A stretch of DNA of 64,000 nucleotides, from the NCBI GenBank assembly GCA_003194525.1, contig NBIV01000210.1:62001-126000 (forward strand). The letters are read 5' to 3'. The number at the start of each line of letters is the position of its first letter. Position 1 is the stretch's first letter. The stretch is from Gracilariopsis chorda (taxonomy: Eukaryota > Rhodophyta > Florideophyceae > Gracilariales > Gracilariaceae). Below the pieces are notes generated by a model. The model saw only the letters and a list, made by a program, of their open reading frames with translations, did not search any database and was not told where the DNA came from. The position numbers were made by a program, and so were the translations under genes. This document shows positions 24,525 to 64,000 of this stretch, in pieces.

Positions 24525-25523
24525 CTAGTAGTCTGTTTTCATTCCCTGTCTCTCTAAGACAGTAGCACAACGCTTTGTCATGCTTTTGACAAGATTGTAG
24601 CACGTGACACGATCAATTTTGTCCCATTCTGACAAAATGCATTCTGTAAGCTCAACAACAGTATCAAACTGTTTTGCATTAGCATAAACTCGCCTAGCCA
24701 GAATTCCCCAAAGATTCTCAATCGGATTGAGATCAGGACTACGTGCTGGCCACTCCATAACATCCACATTGTTAGTCTCAAACCAGTCCTTAGTAAACTT
24801 AGAAGTATGAATTGCTGCATTGTCTTGCTGAAAAATCCATCCTGTCCCGCAAACAGTTTGCGAATAAGGTAGCAAATAGTTTTTCAAGGTTTCAACATAC
24901 TTCTTAGAGTCCTGATTGCCAAGTAACACAGCTAGTTTGCTGACACCTTTTTCAGAAAAAGCTCCCCAAACCATCACTCCACCACCACCTTTCTGTCTCT
25001 TCGACATCACCCGTTCTTCCTTCCTCATATCATGCCAGTAGTAAGCAAAACCATCAGGACCATCCAAGTTGAATTTTTTTTCATCGGAAAACACAACACG
25101 GCCCCATTCTCCAAGTGACCACGCATGCCTTTTCCGAGCCCAATTCAAACGGTTTGTTTTGTGAATGTCGGTTAGAGGAGGAGCCTGTTTCACCTTTTTA
25201 TATTTAAGGTGTTCCTCTGCAGAGAGTATCTGTTGGACTCTACGTTTTGATATAGGCAATTGGAGTGCGACTTTTAGCTGGGACGCAGTTTGTTCGCCCT
25301 TCGATGCTTCACGAACCAGCAGTCGTCGAGCTGCTGGGGTTATTTTTCCCTTCTTGTTGGTGGGTTTTTTAGTCCCATATCCTTTGGTATTGTCTAAGTA
25401 CCGCTTGACGACATCTCGGCTACGCTTCACTTCACGTGATATGGCGGAAATTGACCATCCTGTCTTCCTGAATGCTTCAATTTGGCCTTTTTCCTTCTCC
25501 GACAAATAAGTGCCGCGTGGCAT
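24525..25523 (-). CDS. Tc1/mariner transposase (DD34E)
   Basis: A full-length transposase of 332 aa that should cut and paste its element at TA sites. Residues 1-110 form the paired helix-turn-helix DNA-binding region (EKEKGQIEAFRKTGWS, then ISREVKRSRDVVKRYL). The catalytic triad is complete: Asp in VFSDEKKF, Asp in QQDNAAIH and Glu in NPIENLW. The last two are separated by 34 residues, the Tc1 spacing. GGGGVMVWGAF and ARSPDLNPIE are the other family blocks. No stop or frameshift is present, so it may still be active. Confidence 0.95.
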   Translation of the reverse strand: MPRGTYLSEKEKGQIEAFRKTGWSISAISREVKRSRDVVKRYLDNTKGYGTKKPTNKKGKITPAARRLLVREASKGEQTASQLKVALQLPISKRRVQQILSAEEHLKYKKVKQAPPLTDIHKTNRLNWARKRHAWSLGEWGRVVFSDEKKFNLDGPDGFAYYWHDMRKEERVMSKRQKGGGGVMVWGAFSEKGVSKLAVLLGNQDSKKYVETLKNYLLPYSQTVCGTGWIFQQDNAAIHTSKFTKDWFETNNVDVMEWPARSPDLNPIENLWGILARRVYANAKQFDTVVELTECILSEWDKIDRVTCYNLVKSMTKRCATVLERQGMKTDY

Positions 25524-53790: not shown

Positions 53791-54760
53791 CACTCACCGA
53801 AATTCAAATAAATCCACCAAACCGCCTGCCTTGCTCGTGAAGAGCAAGGCCGGTGGAGGAGGAATAAGTGCGGTAACATATAGCGACTGGTGTAGTTTAC
53901 TTAACAGAACAGCTAGAGCATGCACCTTAAACTATACAACACACTTGTACACACTTTTGTATGTGAAATATAAAATAAATCCACGAAATTCAATAAATCC
54001 AAAAAGTTCTTCAATGTGTTTTGGCGCCAATTGTTGTCGTATCAGAACAACAAAACGGCTACCACAACAACAAAGCCATGCTAAACAGTTCTTGAACAAG
54101 AACTTTTAAAACAGCGTTACGAGTAATGCCTCGCGGTAAAGCGCTAACTGACAGAGAAAAAGGCATCATTCGAGCCTTACGACATGAACAACTCAGCGAA
54201 CGAGAAATTGCTGATGCTGTCGGTCGATCCAAGGGAGCTGTTTGAAACCTTCTGAAGAACTCCAACAAATCCAAACGCAAATATTTAAGAGCTAACAACC
54301 GTAAGCTTACCAAAAAAAAGAGCGTCGAATCATTCGAAAGGCCCTGACTGGTGAGTTGAGTGCCAATGGCATACGTCGGGACATGCAACTACCAGTCACA
54401 ACCGGTCGTGTTCAGCAAATACTTCACAATTTCCCTCACCTAAAGTACAAGAAAATGATGAATGGTCCATACATGAAGTCTTCACACAAATTTCGAAGAA
54501 TGGAATTTGCCAGAAATTACCTTCAATCAGAAGCTATTGACTGGAAGAATGTTATTTTCACGGATGAAAAAAGTTTACTTTGGATGGACCCGATGGCAAC
54601 TGCATGTATTGGCATGATTTACGAACCGAACCAAGTTGGTTTTCTAAACGCAACATTGGAGGAGGATCTGTAATGGTTTGGGGAGCCATTTCTTACTACG
54701 GTGCTTTGCAGGTAGTGGAACTTGTAGTGCAACGCCCTCAGGGAAGGATTCTTGGTACTT
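53791..54760 (+). mobile_element. Decayed Tc1-like element, 3' truncated
   Basis: The left end probably starts at 53791 after TA (53789-53790): CACTCACCGAAATTCAA resembles the intact element's CAGTGCGCGAAATCTC. Two related direct repeats (53798-53816 and 53984-54001, sharing CGAAATTCAA or CGAAATTCAATAAATCC) lie 186 bp apart, like the IR/DR end of the intact copy. The transposase region follows and stops before the second catalytic Asp. No right end was found. Confidence 0.7.
54126..54760 (+). pseudogene. Tc1/mariner transposase pseudogene
   Basis: It starts MPRGKALTDREKG with the paired helix-turn-helix pattern, then meets TGA at 54240-54242. Frameshifts follow in the A-run near 54310-54317 and near 54590. 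Later blocks are recognisable in other frames: RRDMQLPVTTGRVQQIL, FTDEKSLLW with the first catalytic Asp, and GGGSVMVWGAI. Homology ends near 54755, before the QDNA and NPIE motifs. It belongs to a different Tc1 family from the intact copy at 24.5 kb, judging by the divergent N-terminus and ends. Confidence 0.85.
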
Positions 54761-54929
54761 GAACGCTTTCCCGATATTATCGGTTGTGTAGTTTGTATAT
54801 GAACTACGCCCCACTATGGTGGATATGGACACGTGGGACACGGTTTTGGGTCAGTTGGCGGTTGGCCACAGTAGTGGATGTTGCCACGAAATGTGGAGTA
54901 TTTTAGTTAATATTATTTATTATTTTCAC

Positions 54930-56500
54930 ACCCATTTCTGGGAAGCTAGTACTTAGTGCGACGGCGCACTGCCGTCGCACCAGTAAACCTTCCCCAACAA
55001 GGGACCCCAACCTGGGGAATTGGCTCTAGTTGTTGCCGCTTGCACGCGTACTCTACTCCTCCTTGGAGGGAAACGCCGTAAACCACGGGACATCTAACCC
55101 CCTTGCACATCTAAAGAAGCCCATCCTTGGGAGTACAATTGTTCCAATCATATTGGTGTTTCGCCCTGTATAGGGATATTGTTACCGGCATCGCCGTATC
55201 TGTTCGTCGCTCTCGCGACTCACATCGTCCTCTCTTCCTCCTCTTCGCCCTTCCTTTTCCCCCTTTTTAGGGTAGCACCTCCCGCTATCCGCGGCCCTCG
55301 TGTGCGCATCCGCTCACACACCCCCACTTACGTGGAAACATACCTCTACTGAGGATCACACCCCCGCTCACGCGGATACCGATTCTTCGCCTTCACCTCC
55401 CTGCGCGAGTCGCGACAGGTGTCCCTGGTCTTACAAACTGGCTTCGCCGTGACACCTCTGGGAGGGCTCTACCCAACTGGGTTCACCTCGTGAGAGGAAG
55501 ATCCCGAACGTCTTTCGGTGTTTTTCCCCTTTGGGGCATTGCAACACAAAGTGGTCTCCCGACCTAGAATCGGTTTTTGTTTTCTCTCTTACGAGGTTTG
55601 TTTTTATTTACCGGAAGTTCCGTGATCGTTTCCGGTCGTAACGGTATTTTCTCATGTCGAGAAATCCCTCCGATGCGGAGCCAGTGGTTACGCGTAGTCG
55701 CTCCCGCGACAACGCAGACACATCCGAAGTTCGGTTCGTACCCCGTATCCCTATACGGACAAGTTCCAGCCGTACTGGCGCCGCTTCATCGCGGAATGAT
55801 ACCCCCGACTGGGAACCCCAGAACCTCCTTTTGCCCTCGTTATCACCCCCGCAGGGGAATGCAGCATCGACTCCGGCTGTTGCCGCAGTGCCCCAGGCAC
55901 CCCGGCCTGCTCCCGCTGTCGCGGCTTCGAGCCCCCGTGGAACGGGCGATAACAACCCCCAGGGGACTTCCCTGGAATCCCAGGTCCGCGCTCTGTGGAC
56001 CGCCCATGACACCCTTGTAGGGGAACTAAAATCCCTCCAAGAGGTGGTCTCGGCAACCCCCGTAAAGGAGGTCGCCGAGGAACTCCGTATTTTACGGTCT
56101 GACGTCAACTCCGTGTTGGAGAGTTTGGGACAACCCGCCACCTTCATCGAAGGAGTTGAAGCCCGATTTGATCGGATTGCGTCGGTGTTTTCGGAATGCT
56201 AGTTTGACAATCAAAAGGGAAAGAATTGAAATGGACGGATATCGACTCTTAAAACCCACTTTTGAATGAATCAATTTCCATCAAAATATTTTCACACATT
56301 CAACACTGCTAGTTTTTTGAAAGTATAAACTAGTAAAGCACTTCACATTTCCAAGTTATTTCGGACCAAAAACCGAGTCCGGACTCCGCGAAGTGGAGTC
56401 CAGACTCCACTACTACATACCTTCACATGTGAACGTGAGATTGAAAATCTGACCGGACCACCGGAACTGCCCCTTCAAATAGAAGGATAGGATGCTCAGA
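54930..56500. mobile_element. Hairpin-rich retroelement-like fragment
   Basis: From 54930 the DNA changes style to dense small perfect hairpins, for example a 9-bp stem at 54957-54979, 5-bp stems at 55005-55017 and 55206-55219, and a 6-bp stem at 55743-55758. The same style marks the gag-protease element at 61.5 kb, so this is probably the 5' part of a relative. It carries one ORF (55654-56202). No reverse transcriptase or LTR pair is visible. Confidence 0.55.
55654..56202 (+). CDS. Retroelement-like coiled-coil ORF (gag-like)
   Basis: A 182-aa frame starting MSRNPSDAEPVVTRSRSRD. The first two thirds are Arg/Ser/Pro/Ala-rich. The last third is an amphipathic coiled coil (LESQVRALWTAHDTLVGELK, then EVAEELRILRSDVNSVLESL) ending VEARFDRIASVFSEC. 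A basic, disordered start plus a coiled coil would suit a gag N-terminus or another assembly protein of a retroelement. No zinc knuckle. The assignment is by context and style, not by a family match. Confidence 0.4.
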   Translation: MSRNPSDAEPVVTRSRSRDNADTSEVRFVPRIPIRTSSSRTGAASSRNDTPDWEPQNLLLPSLSPPQGNAASTPAVAAVPQAPRPAPAVAASSPRGTGDNNPQGTSLESQVRALWTAHDTLVGELKSLQEVVSATPVKEVAEELRILRSDVNSVLESLGQPATFIEGVEARFDRIASVFSEC

Positions 56501-56746
56501 TAAATACATATATAGGAAATACATTAGAGTTTACAAAACATGATAGCCCTCGCTATCCTTCACTCGTTGTCAGTGTCTGCGGCCTTGCATAGCATGCACC
56601 AGTCCACGAGCCAGCGCAAAACGCTCGGCATCACCTGCTCCACTTCATCCCCGTGCGCCATAATAATTACGCTCCCGCATTTCGCTCTCCAACAACCCCT
56701 TTGCTCCCCTTTCTCCTTCCAATCCTTCAACTCTCCTTCCCGCACC

Positions 56747-57865
56747 ATGTTCCCCTGTTGCTACCCTCGCTGCTCCTTCCACGGCCGCACCACATACTCT
56801 CTTCAGAGTCACCAACGCAGGTGCCCCCATCGCCTCACCGCCAACAAGCGTTCCTCCTCCACAGCCACCGCTCCAGTTCAGTTCCCTCCCAGGACCAAGA
56901 AGCGAAAATCCGTTCCCAACCTCTCCATCAATTCTCCTCCCCTTCCCTCTCACCGTCCTTCCGACAACGTCCCCCTCGCCGATGATGATCCATATGAACT
57001 TCAACAGGCTTCCCTCTCTCTTCAAACCCAAGACGCTTACCATATCGCAAGCCACGCCATCGGCTCCGTCTCCTCCTCAAACCCCCTTCTCCCGCCCCCT
57101 TCTCGTTCCCCTTCCCCTCTCGCCGACAACCCTCATCTCGAACAACTCGTCCTCTACATCTCCTCCATCGCATCCTCCGTCAGCACCCGCAAAGCAGACG
57201 AGCTCATCTCCATCCTCAACCATCCAGACTTCTCCAAGTCCTCCTTCCAGACCTCCATCTCCTCCGCCAGGCAGTGCCTCGCACTGCAAGAGGACCTCTT
57301 CAAGCAACGCATCAGCTCCAACGGCTTCATCCCTTCCACCATCACAGACAAGCGCAACACCTTCTCCGCAACCCTCTTCCAGAAACGTGCCATCGACGTC
57401 CTCAAGCAACAACTCGCACTCGCACACCTCAACAACACCTTCTTCCAGCCGGTATCTCAATCTTCCTCATCTTCTTCGTCTTCTGGTCACCCGGCTTTCG
57501 CACATCCCATGGCTGCAGCCCTCGGAAAGAAAGTCGTCCCAGCCATCAAACAGGAAATTATGCAGTCCCCCGTCGATGACATCGTCTGGCACACCCCCCA
57601 GGAAACCGGTATCGAATCATTCATCGGCCTCGTCCAGCTCTACTCGGACAAGTCCGCAACCTCCCTGAAAAGCTCCTCCGTCAATTCCTACCCCCTCCAC
57701 GTCACGTTTCTCAACTTCTCCGATGCCCTCCGCCGAAAGTGTATATCCGAAAATCTCACACTCCTCGGATACCTTCCAACCTCCTTCTCCCCGTTTACCG
57801 CCTTCGACGACGGCGGCGACTACGTCCCGAAATCATCCTCCAATCAAAAAATTAGTGTAAAATGA
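56747..57865 (+). pseudogene. Truncated KDZ (Plavaka)-like transposase
   Basis: A 372-aa frame from the ATG at 56747. It begins with a C2H2-type zinc finger (CCYPRCSFHG, then SLQSHQRRCPH) and a Pro/Ser-rich linker. The end reads IESFIGLVQLYSDKSATSLK, then YPLHVTFLNFSDALRRKC and LLGYLPT. This is the pattern of the Plavaka branch of Kyakuja-Dileera-Zisupton transposases (SDKT, then YPVYLTLGN, RRKPS, LLGYLPV). Full transposases continue for hundreds of residues after this block; here a stop follows 33 residues later, inside a 15-bp inverted repeat. It is therefore a 5' fragment. The family call is inference from these motifs. Confidence 0.55.
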
Positions 57866-57952
57866 ACCATGCATCTTCCGCCCATGACCTACTAGGTCGT
57901 ACCGCAGATGTCCGTTCATTCCAGACACTAATTTTAAACTAATTTTTTGATT
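57842..57952. repeat. 15-bp inverted repeat across the KDZ-like stop
   Basis: 57842-57856 (AATCAAAAAATTAGT) is the exact reverse complement of 57938-57952. The left arm contains the final codons of the truncated transposase. Confidence 0.75.
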
Positions 57953-57976
57953 TTCGGAACTGCTGGCCGCCACGTG

Positions 57977-58077
57977 GTGGAGGTCCGTGGACCGGAGTGT
58001 CGTGGCGCTTCATCAGGCGTGGCGCTTCATCAGGCGCCTGATGAAGCGCCACGACACTCCGGTCCACGGACCTCCAC
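57977..58077. repeat. Large palindrome with 43-bp arms
   Basis: Arms 57977-58019 and 58035-58077 are perfect reverse complements separated by 15 bp. A 17-bp direct duplication at the inner end of the left arm makes the centre (58020-58051) a further perfect 32-bp palindrome. It would form a very stable cruciform or RNA hairpin. Confidence 0.95.
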
Positions 58078-58386
58078 CCCCAAAAACAAACTTCGAATAC
58101 CAATGCAAAATCATTACAGGTGCATTGCAGCGCCGCCTAAATGAACTTAATGGTTGTCAGGAAACGTCTTCAATACCATGTATTTCAAAAGTATAGATGC
58201 TCACGTCGCCTGAACCGAGCAGACGTGATCACGAGAGCATCTTACGCGACTGGGTGCCACGACAACTTGATCACGCGAACGCTTCAAGATTGCAGCGTGG
58301 TTCTCGGCCGGAATAAGAGTTCTACGAAGACGAAGAAGCATTGTCCCAGGAAATCCGCTTCGCTGCGAAGGCCTGACATAGAAATG

Positions 58387-58632
58387 CCGACTACGCGAGG
58401 AAAAGCGAAAAGCATGGGCAGCTCCAGAGCTTCCAACCTTTCCACGCCTCCGCCCGCTCAACGCGATGCAAACAGAGAGCTCCATGGTGGGGCGTCTGTC
58501 AATTTGTTTGTGCGAATCGGTAATAGCGATGAAAAGGTGAAGGTTGGCAAAGCACAATTGCGGGGTATGGACGTAGCGGGTGGATCTGGGCCTGGAACAG
58601 GACTCTGCCGATCTGACTTTCTGACATGTTGA
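58387..58632 (+). CDS. Unrecognised small basic protein
   Basis: An 81-aa frame from the ATG at 58387: MPTTRGKAKSMGSSRAS, a Thr/Pro stretch, then a short block VNLFVRIGNSDEKVKVGKAQLRGMD that looks folded (two strands and a helix start). It is not recognised. The block weakly recalls the end of Borealin-type proteins, but this is not firm. The frame is open upstream without obvious coding character. Confidence 0.35.
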   Translation, partial: PTTRGKAKSMGSSRASNLSTPPPAQRDANRELHGGASVNLFVRIGNSDEKVKVGKAQLRGMDVAGGSGPGTGLCRSDFLTC

Positions 58633-59188
58633 ATAGATGTAAATAGAGGGACAGGGTGATGGGAGTGGAAAAGATGACGCCATTTGTGTTGGATGATGTT
58701 TAATAGTGAAGGGATGATGTCTGGAAAGATGAAGCTCTGTTATATTTTATTAAGAGAGGTACAGGTATAAGAAGAAACTTGGTGGGCGGGTATATCGGTG
58801 GGGAGAATAAAGAAAGGTATAGTGGACAAATCATATGAGATATGAATGTAAATGAAAGTGAATATGTAATTATTTATGAGAATTAAAGGAGATTGTAGGG
58901 ATGTGAAGCACGACATTGCTACAGGGAAAGACTGCGGTTCCCAAATGTGTCCATAGTGAAGGTAGTGGTTCCTTTCATATCAGAATGCGGTGTGGGGTGC
59001 AAGCAGTGCTTGATTTATGAAAAGGAGTGTAGACACTGAATGCATTATCGTGTACTGGTTCAAAACACTGCTTCGCGTGTTTGGAATTGGGAGGGTTTAG
59101 CAAGTCGGAGGATGGTACGTTGTGCATATAAGCGAGGAAGAGGTTGGTTCAAGTGGGGAGGAGGTACAATCGTGATCGACATTCAAAC
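58633..59188. other. Intergenic, no gene seen
   Basis: About 555 bp of purine-rich, AT-rich DNA between two plus-strand genes. No RNA gene or repeat recognised. Confidence 0.4.
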
Positions 59189-60385
59189 ATGGCATTCGAG
59201 AACATCCACAAGCACCACGACTACTATTTGCAGTCTTCCGAGAGTGACCGGAGGACTCGTGCGTATCTGAATATCTTTCCGAATGAGACGGTGATTCGGT
59301 TTGACGAAGTACTTGAAATTCGGTATAGTACGGATACGGAGAAGGGTGTTGTGCGAGGGGCGTCAAGGTTGCTCACCGCGGGTGTTTTGGAGGATGTGAC
59401 GGAGATATACGAGGTTCTAGACGAAGTACCGACACATAATTATATCTTAACGAATTCAAATTTTTTGCACGTGCTGTACGGGAGTACTCATTTGATACAA
59501 TATCTGGAGAATGCGCCAAACCTTTCTAGAAGCCCTCGTCATATGTTCAGTTTCAGGGCTTGGTGCGCATATGCGTTTCTGTTTTCATTAGCCATTGGTG
59601 CTCTTTATGGGGTATTGAAACCGCTTTTGATGCATTATGTGGTAGGGGATGTTCGAATGTCTCCGAAGATGTTGATTGTGGTAATTCTGGAGACTGTTTT
59701 GCATTTGTTTATCTTCGATATGGTGTTTGCATTGCATAGAAGGCATTTTGGTTCATTGGCATACGTACCTTTGCGGGACAGCCAGCGAATGGCACGGATT
59801 TCTGTGATTCGAAACAGACTACTTGGATTCACGATGGCAGGTCTTTTGCCGTTGAATGTTTGTATTTTTGTTGGCTATCACTTCTTGGAAGCGCCAATTT
59901 CGATTGGAATGGAACTTAGGACTGGTGCTCTTGCATTTTTCACTGGTGGTTTCATGTTTGGGGGTATGTCGTATGTGGTTGAACGGCTAACGATGTTTTT
60001 TGTGACTAGGGACAGCATTAAGAATGAGAGAGAGCTCCCATATGTGCAGAGAGGTAGTGTTGGGCTGATTTTGGATGTGTGCAGGACCGTATACGGTGGT
60101 TTGAATAAGGTGCTTGGGTTTAGAGATGGTGTGGCTACTATGAGGCTCTATATCGGAAGGGTGTTCCCTGTTGTGTTTACCTACTTGATTTTCACGTTCC
60201 TGAGCGATACTTCTTTGCACAAGGTAAGGGGACTCGCGCCTGTAGTGGAGAATACTATCTTTTTCGTGCTGCTTCTTTTGGGTATGGCTGTGGATATGGA
60301 CTTGGAGTACCATTTTCGAAGGTATGTTGCGAATCTAGGAGAGCACTGTAGGCCTGTTGGTTCTCGTTTTGAACCATTTCTTTAG
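59189..60385 (+). CDS. Unrecognised multi-span membrane protein
   Basis: A 398-aa protein from the ATG at 59189 (MAFENIHKHHDYYLQ). Residues 1-120 are hydrophilic. About seven hydrophobic segments follow, including AWCAYAFLFSLAIGALYGVL, MLIVVILETVLHLFIFDMVF, FTMAGLLPLNVCIFVGYHFL, LRTGALAFFTGGFMFGG, VFPVVFTYLIFTFL and TIFFVLLLLGMAVDM. No family could be named. Codon use is G/T-rich, like the next gene and unlike the C-rich genes in the left half, which may mean a different chromosomal context or origin. Confidence 0.65.
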   Translation: MAFENIHKHHDYYLQSSESDRRTRAYLNIFPNETVIRFDEVLEIRYSTDTEKGVVRGASRLLTAGVLEDVTEIYEVLDEVPTHNYILTNSNFLHVLYGSTHLIQYLENAPNLSRSPRHMFSFRAWCAYAFLFSLAIGALYGVLKPLLMHYVVGDVRMSPKMLIVVILETVLHLFIFDMVFALHRRHFGSLAYVPLRDSQRMARISVIRNRLLGFTMAGLLPLNVCIFVGYHFLEAPISIGMELRTGALAFFTGGFMFGGMSYVVERLTMFFVTRDSIKNERELPYVQRGSVGLILDVCRTVYGGLNKVLGFRDGVATMRLYIGRVFPVVFTYLIFTFLSDTSLHKVRGLAPVVENTIFFVLLLLGMAVDMDLEYHFRRYVANLGEHCRPVGSRFEPFL

Positions 60386-60627
60386 ACACGTTCGTAGTTC
60401 TACCTGTACATACCTAAGTTAGTGTGATAGAGTTGTAAACTGAAGGAAGTGTTAAACTAATGTCGTTCTAAATTTTTCGTTTCAGATTATTGGTGGGACA
60501 CGACTCGGTGGGAAATGGCGCGAAAACGGGCGAGTGAAAAAATGCGGTTGGATAAGTACCTGGGGAGTGCTCGCTTGGTGGTTGGGTTAGGAACGGGAGC
60601 GCCGTTGTGGTGGGGCGTGTAGTAGCC

Positions 60628-61386
60628 ATGTCTAGCGAAGACGTGAATGATGAGGAGCTACTGGCGTTGTTGGATAAAGCGGAGAAGAGGGAGGTCCCCG
60701 AGACGCCTCCAAGGACGAAGAAGGAGGAGGAAGGGAAGGGTGATGGTGAAGAGGGCAAGGGAAGGAACGTTGTTGGGTTCGGGGAGCTTGGGGTTGGGAC
60801 GATGATGGGAGGGGATGGGGGGGAGGGAAGTGAGGGCGAGGGAAGTCGAGGAGGACGGGGAGGAGGAGGAGGTGGGGCGGGGCGAATGAGTCGGTTTTAC
60901 CGCGATGTGAAGAAACTGGTGAGGAGCGTGGGCGGAGGGCTTAAGGAGCGTTTGGATGAGTGTATCGAGGAGGTTGTGGTGGAGATGGGGGGGATGGTGC
61001 TGAGTTCTTCAGAGGAAGGGGTGCCTATGGGTGCTGTGGCTGAGCTGCATAGGAGGGCAAGGGAGGCTGGGTTGTGGGCGGAAATGCATGTCGATGGGGT
61101 TGTGGCGTGTGTGGGTGAGGAGCTGAGGAGACTGTGGAAGGAGAACGAGGAGATGCGTAGACGGGTTTTGGTGTTGGAGAAGCAACTTTTACTGGTTGGT
61201 AGGGCTGTGCATCTAATCGAGGAAATGCAGAAGAAGGTGTGTGATGCGGAAGGGAGAGCTGTTGTCGGGGAAGGCACTCCTGTTACTCCCGGTCGACGGG
61301 CTGTAAGGAAGAGGTTGGAGGAGAAGGACGACGAAGGAATAGAAGGTGAGAGTCGGTTGAAGAGGAGGCGTGGAATGAGAGGATAA
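60628..61386 (+). CDS. Unrecognised acidic, Gly-rich coiled-coil protein
   Basis: A 252-aa frame from the ATG at 60628 (gccATGt). The start (MSSEDVNDEELLALLDKAEK) is an acidic helix, then a Lys/Glu/Gly-rich low-complexity part. From about residue 85 on it is helical (RFYRDVKKLVRSVGGGLKER), with a heptad stretch ENEEMRRRVLVLEKQLLLVG near 175-195. The basic end (LKRRRGMRG) could be a nuclear signal. No family is recognised. It is strongly G-rich on the coding strand. Confidence 0.5.
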   Translation: MSSEDVNDEELLALLDKAEKREVPETPPRTKKEEEGKGDGEEGKGRNVVGFGELGVGTMMGGDGGEGSEGEGSRGGRGGGGGGAGRMSRFYRDVKKLVRSVGGGLKERLDECIEEVVVEMGGMVLSSSEEGVPMGAVAELHRRAREAGLWAEMHVDGVVACVGEELRRLWKENEEMRRRVLVLEKQLLLVGRAVHLIEEMQKKVCDAEGRAVVGEGTPVTPGRRAVRKRLEEKDDEGIEGESRLKRRRGMRG

Positions 61387-61865
61387 GGAGAAGAAGGATG
61401 GTAAGGATGGTAAGGGAGGTTTTATGTTTGGTGTTCAAGAGTGTGGGTGCCACCCAGTGAGGCTGAGAGAACAGTTGGGCTCCAAACTTTGACAATTTGA
61501 AGTTTGAAATCCACGAGATGGAAATATGTAAGTTAATTTGGGTTGCATGGGGGTGGGGCCGCTGGCCGCTACGCGGCCAGCGCCATTTCGAGCCCTCTAA
61601 CTAGCGTTTAGTGAGCAAAGAACTTGCTCTAAACTTGAAACTAGCGAAGTGCGGTACTAGGGACGGATGACAATAGAAAATATGAAAGAGTGATTTCCGA
61701 AAAATTTTTTTTTTTGCTTGCCAACCACCACGAACTAGCAGAATCTAGCGTTTTCGTAGTTTTTTTGAGTGATTGCCTAACAAACTTGCGATCTAGCACC
61801 CTTATCTAGCATTCCGAGAACACCGACGTGGTGCCCGCCTGGAGACGCTGGAGCAGTTCGTCCTC
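61387..61865. other. 5' flank of the retrotransposon gag
   Basis: It contains a 10-bp stem hairpin (61560-61582), a second hairpin around GAGCAA/TTGCTC (61614-61630), an 11-T run near 61706-61716, and six CTAGC motifs (61601, 61641, 61735, 61745, 61793, 61806). TGGTGCCCGCCTGG near 61832 could be a primer-binding site because it begins TGG, but no tRNA match was identified. LTR borders could not be set. Confidence 0.4.
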
Positions 61866-63479
61866 ATGGACAAACCATCCCCGGATGATCCGGTAAACGG
61901 GGCATCGCACAACGACCAGCTTGCTGGGAAGAAGAAACGCCGTCATCGACGGAAACACCACCGAAAATATTCGGACTCCGATTGTTCGACATCGTCGGAA
62001 TCATCCCGAAACCATTCGGTTAGCTCGAGCTCCTCGGACTCCGACTCGGAGGACGAGAAGCGAGGCTACTCCTCCCGCTCGAAGCGGTCATCGGCCACTG
62101 AAGGTGTGGTCCGAACCCGCCAGAAGGGGAGAAGACACCCTGGTCTCCCGGAATTGAAACCGACAAACCCGGATTACCGGAAGCTTTTATCATACCGGTA
62201 CTACCGGCTCGAAGACTCGTCACTTGGACGTACGCCCCGTGGTACGGGAAAGGTGCGAGAATGCATTAAGCGAATGCAGCTCTCGCTCCGCAACCAGTAT
62301 TTTACTGGAGAGGACCCAGTCCTAGTACTGGATTTCCTATCCCGCTTTGTAGCGGAGGCCGATATCCTCGGTATGAATGAGGGACAAGCCTATTTGGCTT
62401 TACCGTATTTCTTACGGGGAGTGGCGGAGGACCAATACACCTCTGTCAGAGGATCTTCTCGCGCCTCCGAGGGAGGAGTTACTTGCTGGCCGGAGGCTGT
62501 GCAGTATCTTCTGCGCTCCTACGCCACCAACACCGCTATTCAGCAGGCTATCCTCGCTTTGCGAGATACACGCCAGCGCGCTGGAGAGACCGAGACCGAT
62601 TACTCGGTGCGCCTTAACAAGGCTTTCCACAGATGTGGTAACGTATACCCCGCTGGGGAGCGCAGTACCATGTTCATTGATGGTCTTGACCCGGCAATCC
62701 GGAGTTTAGTTACCCGTTATCGGGAGGACAATCGGAGGATCACCTACCTCGAGCTGGTCCAACACGCCCGAGCGGAAGGGGATGCACTTCGTGCAAGAAC
62801 TCCGAACAATCGGTCTGAATCCGCCAAGGCGTTGTTGCTGGAAAGCGAAGCTTCCTCTCTCCCGCTCACCGCGGATGGGAACCCTGGACAGGGATTTGAT
62901 ACCGTGCATTTAGTGCAGGGGGATGGTGTGTCGATACCCACCAGTGATTTGCCGTCAACGACGGAGATGACCCGTGATACGGGAACGGAAGATCCCTTTT
63001 TGTACAGTGGTAACAGTCGGGTTCAACCCCAACGACTCCCGTTTTCAAACGGTCAATCCCGTTATCAACGGCCTGGATGGACTGACACCCGCCCTGTGGT
63101 TCGCTTCTCCGATACTCGGAATAATATTCCGCGTGTCGCGGTAGTGGCTCTAATTTGCCACCTGTGCTATGCCCATGGCCATACCTCTCCTCAGTGTATT
63201 TGTTCACTGAAGGATATGGCCAAGGTGGTGGCAAATTATGAGGCCCTCACTCCAGAGGAGAAACGTTCCGTCCCGACGGCTTCCTACCTCCGTGCTAAAA
63301 CGGACTTTTCCCACGCCCTACCACAGACCCCGCGTGCGCGGCAAGCTTCATACACCCCGATTCGGGAGATCACGCAACCATCCGTTGCAACCCCCGCTTA
63401 TGCGGATAGAAACCCCCGTCAACAGGATGAAGCACTCGTTGTCGAGGAAACCAACCCACCGCCGAAGGCGGAAAACTAA
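61866..63479 (+). CDS. Retrotransposon gag protein
   Basis: A 537-aa structural protein. Residues 1-75 are basic then Ser/Asp-rich (KKKRRHRRKHHRK, then a Ser/Asp run). The capsid-like helical domain follows at about 110-320: YFTGEDPVLVLDFLSRFVAE, then AYLALPYFLRGVAEDQY, the ETETDYSVRLNKAFHRC block and MFIDGLDPAIRSLV, as in retrotransposon gag families. Near the C-terminus, CHLCYAHGHTSPQC (about 436-449) is a zinc-knuckle-like CX2CX4HX5C. The stop TAA at 63477 is preceded by a perfect hairpin (63459-63471). The frame is uninterrupted. Confidence 0.85.
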   Translation: MDKPSPDDPVNGASHNDQLAGKKKRRHRRKHHRKYSDSDCSTSSESSRNHSVSSSSSDSDSEDEKRGYSSRSKRSSATEGVVRTRQKGRRHPGLPELKPTNPDYRKLLSYRYYRLEDSSLGRTPRGTGKVRECIKRMQLSLRNQYFTGEDPVLVLDFLSRFVAEADILGMNEGQAYLALPYFLRGVAEDQYTSVRGSSRASEGGVTCWPEAVQYLLRSYATNTAIQQAILALRDTRQRAGETETDYSVRLNKAFHRCGNVYPAGERSTMFIDGLDPAIRSLVTRYREDNRRITYLELVQHARAEGDALRARTPNNRSESAKALLLESEASSLPLTADGNPGQGFDTVHLVQGDGVSIPTSDLPSTTEMTRDTGTEDPFLYSGNSRVQPQRLPFSNGQSRYQRPGWTDTRPVVRFSDTRNNIPRVAVVALICHLCYAHGHTSPQCICSLKDMAKVVANYEALTPEEKRSVPTASYLRAKTDFSHALPQTPRARQASYTPIREITQPSVATPAYADRNPRQQDEALVVEETNPPPKAEN

Positions 63480-64000
63480 CTGAGGGAGTCTCCCCTTTGG
63501 GAGAGGCGTCCTCAAGAACGAGGCTGCTGGCGCCCGAGGCGTCCTCGCCTCGCTCCCCGGTGAAAGTCCTCTCGAGGAAAGACACCGCTGACGCGGACTC
63601 TGCGCACCCCGGTGTGTTGCGTCGCCCGTGGATACGGAGTAAAAATCCCCGGATTCCCGGTAGAGTCTTGGTCTTGGCCAAACGCAATTATAAGGTCTAT
63701 GCCGACCTTGGCCTTGACCCCCAGTTTATGGTGAGGTTTCTCACCGTCCTGGATACAGGTGCAGGCCCCAACTTTGTTGTGGAATCATTGTTACCCCCGC
63801 TTGTACGGTCGCGTATCCGCTCTGACGCGGTCCCCGACATTTCGGATGCGAACAACAATCCGTTACAAACGGTGGGCACAGTAGACCTCGTCGTGAGACT
63901 TGGTACCTCTGTGGTGAAGTTGGATTTCATCGTTTGCCGTTCATTGGCAGCACCAGTCATACTGGGATGTGATTACTGCGACAGATTTGTCGACGCAATC
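63431..64000 (+). CDS. Retrotransposon aspartic protease (partial, runs off the window)
   Basis: An open frame in the -1 phase relative to gag, beginning after a stop at 63428-63430 and overlapping the last 49 bases of gag. The catalytic motif LDTGAG is at 63749-63766, and the ILGCD motif of the second protease half is near 63959. The frame is open to the last base. There is no ATG near its start, so expression by -1 frameshifting at the gag end is likely but not shown. Confidence 0.8.

What the first reader, a model, noticed from the sequence alone, without database searches (positions are those of the whole stretch)
61550..64000. A retrotransposon written in mini-hairpins
Across gag and protease I marked more than 35 perfect stem-loops with 4-6 bp stems and 2-6 nt loops, usually starting CC and ending GG. 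Examples: 61881-61893 (CCGGA-TGA-TCCGG), 61916-61927, 61940-61952, 61961-61974, 62236-62248, 62342-62355, 62403-62417, 62440-62452, 62952-62964, 62971-62983, 63039-63052, 63059-63071, 63129-63141, 63459-63471, 63536-63551, 63730-63745 and 63860-63872. At equal base frequencies a 5-bp stem with one of three loop sizes should arise about six times in 2 kb; I see roughly three times that. Stems start in all three codon phases, so this is not a protein repeat. It may serve RNA packaging, protection, silencing escape or a DNA-level process. I know of no described element with this property.
Basis: seen in the sequence. Interest (0 to 1): 0.82.

Follow-up and report, generated by a model that had tools for sequence, protein, structure and literature searches.

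The report
Retrotransposon packed with tiny selected hairpins
A young jumping element in a red-alga genome carries about 180 tiny perfect hairpins along its whole length, far more than chance and apparently kept by selection, which suggests an undescribed hairpin-reading step in its life cycle.

Summary
In 61869-64000, stems of 5 bp or more with 2-6 nt loops number 49 against 9.8 in dinucleotide shuffles (0 of 200 reach it); in gag, 39 against 9.1 with protein and codon usage fixed. The owner is a young chromodomain Ty3/gypsy LTR element of a Gracilariaceae-type red alga; the excess spans the element, LTRs included.

The core is a grammar: 5'-CC, 2-3 paired bases, 3-4 nt loop, 2-3 paired bases, GG-3'. 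Copy L031 has 181 against 9.4 expected; the mirror GG...CC class is at 11/8.1; window 1-54000 is at 18/19.3. One mismatch, G.U included, removes most of the excess. CC-hairpin stems diverge little in several (not all) comparisons, while loops diverge freely. Neighbours closer than 4 nt are nearly absent (1 against 14.3). Related families show other grammars.

Best reading: weak, distributed selection for hairpins read by a protein, most likely Gag.

The parts
54723..55548 (+). 5' LTR of the window copy (begins TGTAGTGCAACG, ends CACA)
   Evidence: BLASTN to the LTRs of L031 and L004; start found at 54723
55552..55564 (+). primer-binding-site-like TGGTCTCCCGACC just after the LTR (read by eye; no tRNA was matched)
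   Evidence: sequence printed
55642..56179 (+). first part of gag, cut by the inserted element
   Evidence: open frame; same reading as gag of L031; BLASTN ends at 56179
61829..63479 (+). rest of gag, with zinc knuckle CHLCYAHGHTSPQC
   Evidence: BLASTN resumes at 61829; frame; knuckle pattern in L031; relatives P0009 and P0014 match PF03732
63431..64000 (+). start of pol in another frame (protease-like DTGA, recalled motif), runs off the window
   Evidence: open frame; downstream RT, RNase H, integrase and chromodomain in L031
54771..56175. 27 non-overlapping CC...GG hairpins of 11-16 nt (listed by coordinate)
61881..63965. 37 non-overlapping CC...GG hairpins (listed by coordinate); 30 lie in gag 61869-63476 against 2.4 in synonymous-codon shuffles (maximum 6 in 200)
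   Evidence: 36 against 2.0 by four geometries

Best explanation
A family of chromodomain Ty3/gypsy retrotransposons keeps about 180 compact hairpins along its ~9.6 kb: 5'-CC, 2-3 more Watson-Crick pairs of any sequence, a 3-4 nt loop of any sequence, GG-3' (11-14 nt). Shown: the excess, its sharp geometry and base grammar, its absence from window 1-54000, low divergence of CC-hairpin stems but not of loops in several comparisons, and near absence of neighbours closer than 4 nt. Inferred: weak selection spread over many sites holds them because an element-specific factor reads them, with a footprint wider than the hairpin. The likeliest reader is the element's own Gag (basic region plus zinc knuckle), using them as many dispersed binding sites to coat, compact and choose its own genome for packaging or reverse transcription. 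Families with another grammar would then have a reader with another preference.
For: CC hairpins 181 against 9.4 in L031 while GG...CC are 11 against 8.1; 5+3: CC 59 against 0.9, GG 0 against 0.9, so it is not stability alone, and inner pairs are not GC-enriched (0.59 against 0.66 in shuffles). Lengths of 15-18 nt fall to 4, 3, 2, 2 against 1.2-1.3. Between copies L004 and L007, 81 of 86 CC hairpins are unchanged against 51 of 68 others. From J to A in gag, CC stems differ at 17 of 187 letters, loops at 30 of 67, other hairpin stems at 56 of 209. Gaps of 0-3 nt: 1 against 14.3; 4-11 nt: 44 against 28.9. Grammar differs by family: A, J, I and LTR D use CC (13-21 fold), B and E use G..G arms with 4-nt loops (17 against 1.26; 10 against 0.67). 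A, I and J share both the CC grammar and a near-identical zinc knuckle. Synonymous choice carries it: 44 CC hairpins in gag of L031 against 3.4.
Against: No binding data exist. G.U inside the stem is no better than A.C (5/1.6 and 5/1.8), unusual for an RNA-only structure. Loops show no strand bias in A, B or C. Compensatory change is rare (0-2 changed-yet-perfect CC hairpins per comparison) and pair retention is not clearly above control. Some conservation tests fail: L007 to L004 against other hairpin stems p 0.11, A to J p 0.34, I to A p 0.26; in the window's 5' piece 24 of 33 CC hairpins of L004 are unchanged against 15 of 21 others; copies within family C keep hairpins little better than random. 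Overall spacing is not significantly more even than random (CV 0.90 against 0.99 +- 0.07), and the gap bins were chosen after looking. The gag of B and E could not be read.
Confidence: 0.42

Rival explanations
1. The hairpins act in single-stranded DNA: they fold in the cDNA during reverse transcription or integration and are read there by an element or host factor, or keep the strand from misfolding.
For: Strict Watson-Crick pairing: single G.U and single A.C are equally poor; no strand bias in loops; both LTRs are included.
Against: No described retroelement step reads such hairpins (recalled); the same data fit a protein on RNA that needs a regular helix.
Confidence: 0.22
2. Silencing escape: small RNAs from either strand, and their targets, fold on themselves, so Argonaute guides work poorly. 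Both strands must fold, hence no G.U.
For: The genome has two near-complete Piwi domains among 46 matches and two long frames (1754 and 1762 aa) with paired RNase III domains, i.e. Dicer-like. 36% of 21-nt windows of A hold a complete hairpin against 12% in 10 kb of host DNA; windows with RNA folding energy of -3 or lower are 0.52/0.58 (sense/antisense) against 0.26/0.31 in one shuffle.
Against: Does not predict CC over GG, indifference to inner GC, the avoidance of close neighbours or different grammars by family. Most 21-nt windows still lack a hairpin. RNA-dependent RNA polymerase search did not complete.
Confidence: 0.14
3. Genome-wide RNA folding for stability or protection, like genome-scale ordered RNA structure of some RNA viruses, without a specific reader.
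For: Whole-length distribution and turnover of most hairpins between families.
Against: Loops of 7-8 nt on 5-bp stems are not enriched (7/8 and 12/8); GG...CC of equal stacking is not enriched; inner GC is not favoured; G.U is not accepted.
Confidence: 0.08
4. Mutation bias: template switching by reverse transcriptase turns near-palindromes into perfect ones.
For: Perfect Watson-Crick arms; the element passes through reverse transcription.
Against: Between L004 and L007 hairpins of 5 bp or more total 98 and 97, with 81 shared against 60.3 +- 4.7 under random placement; copy-specific ones (17 and 16) mostly differ by one or a few point changes. Stem changes are rarer than elsewhere, which a birth bias alone does not give. 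Variants found in one of 26 copies hit stems at the site fraction (0.361, sites 0.366), shared ones less (0.232).
Confidence: 0.07
5. Composition, codon or alignment artefact.
For: The element is GC-richer (0.50-0.64 per 500 nt) than much of the window.
Against: Dinucleotide, codon-order and synonymous-codon shuffles all fail to reproduce it; window 1-54000 sits at expectation, with 7+3 (8/2) and 6+5 (19/9) the only cells clearly above it.
Confidence: 0.01

Closest known systems
Ty3/gypsy LTR retrotransposons with an integrase chromodomain (chromoviruses)
   Same: LTRs, gag, pol with RT, RNase H, integrase zinc-binding and core domains, chromodomain
   Different: None of the papers listed was recognisable as describing a hairpin-rich member (listings only)
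Dispersed packaging signals of small RNA viruses (MS2, satellite tobacco necrosis virus, parechovirus; search listing and abstract starts only)
   Same: Many short stem-loops over the whole genome, each a weak site; possible protein reader
   Different: There the recognition motif is typically in the loop (for example RGAG in hepatitis B virus, abstract start); here the loop is free and the stem base CC/GG is fixed. Parechovirus is described with 60 sites; here about 180, G.U-intolerant, in a retroelement including its LTRs. Protein contact is untested here
Genome-scale ordered RNA structure of RNA viruses (recalled; one search gave listings only)
   Same: Structure spread over the whole genome with turnover of individual stems
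   Different: That is a folding-energy property which allows G.U and long stems (recalled); here only compact CC...GG hairpins are strongly enriched

Membership tests
Ty3/gypsy LTR retrotransposon, chromodomain lineage | Two LTRs, TG...CA ends | tested here: met
   L004/L031 LTRs 98.4% alike over an 823-nt alignment; ends TGTAG...CACA read
Ty3/gypsy LTR retrotransposon, chromodomain lineage | pol order RT - RNase H - integrase, then chromodomain | tested here: met
   PF00078, PF17917/PF17919, PF17921/PF00665, PF00385 in this order in L031
Ty3/gypsy LTR retrotransposon, chromodomain lineage | gag with capsid-type domain | tested here: inconclusive
   No Pfam family in the element's own gag at E 0.01; relatives P0009 and P0014 (47% and 44% identical) match PF03732
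Dispersed packaging signals | Many stem-loops above chance across the genome | tested here: met
   181 CC hairpins against 9.4 in L031
Dispersed packaging signals | Shared recognition motif in the loop | tested here: not met
   Loops of family A are near free in sequence; the constant part is the stem base
Dispersed packaging signals | Contact with the particle protein | not testable with these tools
   No binding or particle data
Conserved structural RNA element | Compensatory changes above control between relatives | tested here: inconclusive
   P(Watson-Crick given both sides changed) 0.27-0.57 against 0.33-0.38 in controls, above control in 8 of 12 directed comparisons, small numbers, no test applied; changed-yet-perfect hairpins are few
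Conserved structural RNA element | Match to a described RNA family | tested here: not met
   0 Rfam matches at gathering score in window 54000-64000

The most novel reading that the evidence does not exclude
These elements carry a genome-wide hairpin code: the nucleic acid is under weak selection at hundreds of places to form tiny hairpins with a lineage-specific grammar (CC...GG base in A, J, I and the LTR D; G..G arms with 4-nt loops in B and E), read as a spaced array by an element-encoded protein on RNA or on single-stranded cDNA. Grammar and reader co-diverge, so each family marks its own genome as self all along its length rather than at one packaging site.
Probability: 0.35. Interest if true: 0.95.

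Novelty: new variant of a known kind. Interest (0 to 1): 0.85.

Why it matters
How a retroelement tells its own genome from cellular nucleic acid is usually ascribed to one local packaging signal (recalled). Here selection appears to act on about 180 sites per element, with a grammar that differs between related families of one genome. That makes it directly testable whether a Gag-like protein reads a dispersed hairpin code, and whether such a code can steer codon choice in a mobile element.

Tried and rejected
Strand evidence from flanks: A follows the 5+3 hairpin in 48 of 86 cases, but A follows 51% of GG dinucleotides not followed by G anyway, so I dropped it as evidence for RNA.

Quasi-palindrome repair by reverse transcriptase: the natural neutral explanation; disfavoured as main cause. 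No paper of the library holds both 'retrotransposon' and 'quasipalindrome'.

A fixed structural RNA: not supported; no Rfam match.

Relatives in viral contigs: one scan gave 2 distant loci, with 36 against 28.1 +- 5.0 and 38 against 30.4 +- 5.8 hairpins, i.e. no clear excess.

RNA-dependent RNA polymerase of the host: not answered four times, so unknown.

Dropped rows: the row L004 vs L001 compares partly unrelated DNA (906 differences) and is not used. In one search family A copies carry some unrelated flank; I use it only for the equality of G.U and A.C. In one search the gag polymorphism count is superseded, where 60-column blocks less than 80% like L004 were masked. In one search half of the copies were not turned round, so its counts are not used. 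In one search loci of minus-strand hits were read in contig orientation, which swaps G.U and A.C there; neither was enriched.

Full report
WHAT IS THERE. In the genomic copy L031 the order is LTR, gag (728 aa), pol with RT, RNase H, integrase and chromodomain, a G-rich tract and the 3' LTR; the pol frame of that copy holds two stops. The two LTRs are 98.4% alike over an 823-nt alignment. In its own genome (91.3 Mb, 1,081 contigs) a gag search scored 81 places: the window's own and 80 at 96-97% protein identity; 2,624 candidates were seen, so copies are a lower bound. The window copy runs 54723-56179 and 61829-64000 and is split by another inserted element. The host is a red alga: the window's importin alpha is 97% identical to an unnamed protein and 86% to Agarophyton chilense; of the gag relatives that bear an organism name, seven are from Agarophyton chilense and one, matching over only 14%, from Gracilariopsis chorda. 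No call names the species.

THE OBSERVATION. All 17 listed hairpins exist. For stems of 5 bp or more with loops of 2-6 nt, 61869-64000 holds 49 against 9.8 in shuffles, and gag 39 against 9.1 with protein and codon usage kept. Apart from the element's two parts, the two-kb windows of the 64 kb lie between z -2.3 and 2.2. In three genomic copies all 60 steps of 500 nt lie above expectation, 4-15 against 1.4-3.4, LTRs included.

THE GRAMMAR. The excess is compact. In family A, hairpins whose stem cannot be extended outward number 79 against 8 for 5+3 (5 bp stem, 3 nt loop) and 111 against 30 for 4+4, but 103 against 118 for 3+3, 7 against 8 for 5+7 and 12 against 8 for 5+8. It is nearly confined to stems that begin CC and end GG: 5+3, CC 59 against 0.9 and GG 0 against 0.9; 4+4, CC 82 against 3.5 and GG 3 against 3.4. 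Inner pairs and loops are nearly free, and inner pairs are not GC-enriched (0.59 against 0.66). Among CC...GG 13-mers the fully paired class is 59 against 1.2, whereas one inner G.U gives 5 against 1.6, one A.C 5 against 1.8 and one other mismatch 12 against 7.0 (summed over three positions). Over four geometries CC hairpins number 181 against 9.4 in L031, 36 against 2.0 in 61829-64000, and 18 against 19.3 in window 1-54000; other hairpins of A are also raised, 106 against 57.9. Of 179 non-overlapping CC hairpins, neighbours with gaps of 0-3 nt are almost absent (1 against 14.3), gaps of 4-11 nt (44 against 28.9) and 24-31 nt (24 against 17.8) are favoured, and 16-23 nt are avoided (12 against 21.5): a loose register of roughly 20 nt. 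These bins were chosen after looking, and overall evenness is not significant (CV 0.90 against 0.99 +- 0.07).

OTHER FAMILIES. Thirty integrase loci of the same genome were scored (the search scored 150 of 3,346 candidates and gave 30 loci). Eight, of families B and C, are strongly hairpin-rich (stems of 4 bp or more 109-133 against 44-49). The other 22 are weaker (stems of 5 bp or more 1.5-2.4 fold). Two further gag families, I and J, are rich (28 against 9.4 and 34 against 8.4). A, J, I and the LTR-like stretch D share the CC class (13-21 fold). B and E favour 4+4 hairpins with G at both ends of the 5' arm (17 against 1.26; 10 against 0.67), and C favours CC in the middle of the arm (16 against 1.17). 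F has no CC hairpin (0 against 1.8), H no excess (3 against 2.9), G a little (9 against 2.9). One copy stands for each family in these counts.

SELECTION OR MUTATION. Between copies L004 and L007 (200 differences in 4,588 nt), hairpins of 5 bp or more number 98 and 97, with 81 shared; random placement of the same changes leaves 60.3 +- 4.7. L004 against L013, L016 and L017, and family B, point the same way (93, 92, 94 against 82-84; 35 against 30.7 +- 2.3); four pairs in family C do so only weakly (41-42 against 38.8-39.7) and L004 against L005 has too few differences. The differences are uneven: 62 of 200 fall in one 300-nt stretch, which random placement ignores. By class, 81 of 86 CC hairpins of L004 are unchanged in L007 against 51 of 68 others; from L007 it is 82 of 91 against 51 of 62. 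CC-stem letters of L004 differ less than other hairpin stems (p 0.0044) and than CC/GG letters outside hairpins (p 0.004); from L007 p is 0.11 and 7.7e-6. From J to A in gag, CC stems differ at 5/79 outer and 12/108 inner letters, loops at 30/67, other hairpin stems at 56/209 and remaining sites at 385/1057. From A to J, CC stems do not differ from other hairpin stems (p 0.34), as expected if A gained CC hairpins after the split, though they do from other CC/GG letters (p 0.00073); I to A is not significant (p 0.26, 0.42); pol C to A gives p 0.00068 and 0.071. The window copy itself is mixed: its 3' piece keeps 35 of 38 CC hairpins of L004 (others 27 of 30), its 5' piece 24 of 33 (others 15 of 21). 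Synonymous differences in gag of L004/L007 are 0.107 per site in stems, 0.170 in loops and 0.153 outside, untested. In 26 copies (L007 left out), variants found once fall in stems at the site fraction (0.361, sites 0.366) while variants shared by two or more copies are fewer there (0.232, p 0.007; once against shared p 0.028). With L007 kept, shared variants are still low (0.245, p 0.011) but once-against-shared is not significant (p 0.18); for stems of 5 bp or more there is no such contrast. Together this favours selection on the transmitted lineage over biased mutation, with several weak spots. Read as mutation-selection balance, the logarithm of the enrichment, about 1-4 per hairpin, would mean weak selection spread over many sites (inference).

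COMPENSATION. Between families most hairpins are not in the same place, and pairs changed on both sides stay Watson-Crick in 0.27-0.57 of cases against 0.33-0.38 in control pairs. Single cases exist, such as one LTR hairpin whose arms changed together between A and D. I do not claim covariation.

MECHANISM. CC over GG at the same stacking energy, indifference to inner GC, the length limit and the avoidance of close neighbours point to a reader with a footprint rather than to folding energy. Differences between families point to an element-encoded reader, and Gag is the natural candidate; A, I and J share a near-identical zinc knuckle as well as the CC grammar. The rejection of G.U and the lack of strand bias in loops leave RNA or single-stranded DNA open, or a need for both strands to fold. 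The host has near-complete Piwi domains and Dicer-like frames, so silencing escape stays possible, but it does not explain the grammar.

COMPARISON. It works most like the dispersed packaging signals of small RNA viruses (search listing and abstract starts). It does not meet their loop-motif feature and protein contact is untested, so I do not file it as a member. Searches of the paper library by words found no described hairpin-rich retrotransposon (listings only, no paper was opened, and most subscription papers are missing from that library). I therefore rate it a new variant of a known kind, with a categorically new reading kept in the section on the most novel reading.

Noticed in passing
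window 56180-61828: A 5.65 kb insertion in gag with inverted ends (about 23 bp, CGTCGGTGTTYTCGGAATGCTAG, read by eye) and a 2-bp TG duplication. Its 398-aa frame (59189-60382) has one relative in the protein search (89%, unnamed) and no Pfam match; a second frame tested (60625-61383) has none either.
   Followed up: partly
own genome, contigs C483, C648, C777, C944 and others: Degenerate Piwi-domain fragments on both strands, repeated about every 8,008 bp on some contigs: arrays of broken Argonaute pieces in inverted arrangement.
   Followed up: no
window 24525-25523 (-) and 54305-54673 (+): Tc1/mariner-like transposase frames (by eye from the translations; not searched).
   Followed up: no
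L004 against L007, alignment 900-1200: 62 of 200 differences fall in one 300-nt stretch at the start of gag, as if one copy had recombined with another lineage.
   Followed up: no
L042 (family E): A more distant Ty3-like element whose only clearly enriched geometry is 4+4 (36 against 11), a second possible hairpin grammar.
   Followed up: partly
own genome, family I gag: About 70 copies match the Agarophyton protein P0001 in two pieces with a short overlap; many carry in-frame stops, so the family looks older than A.
   Followed up: no
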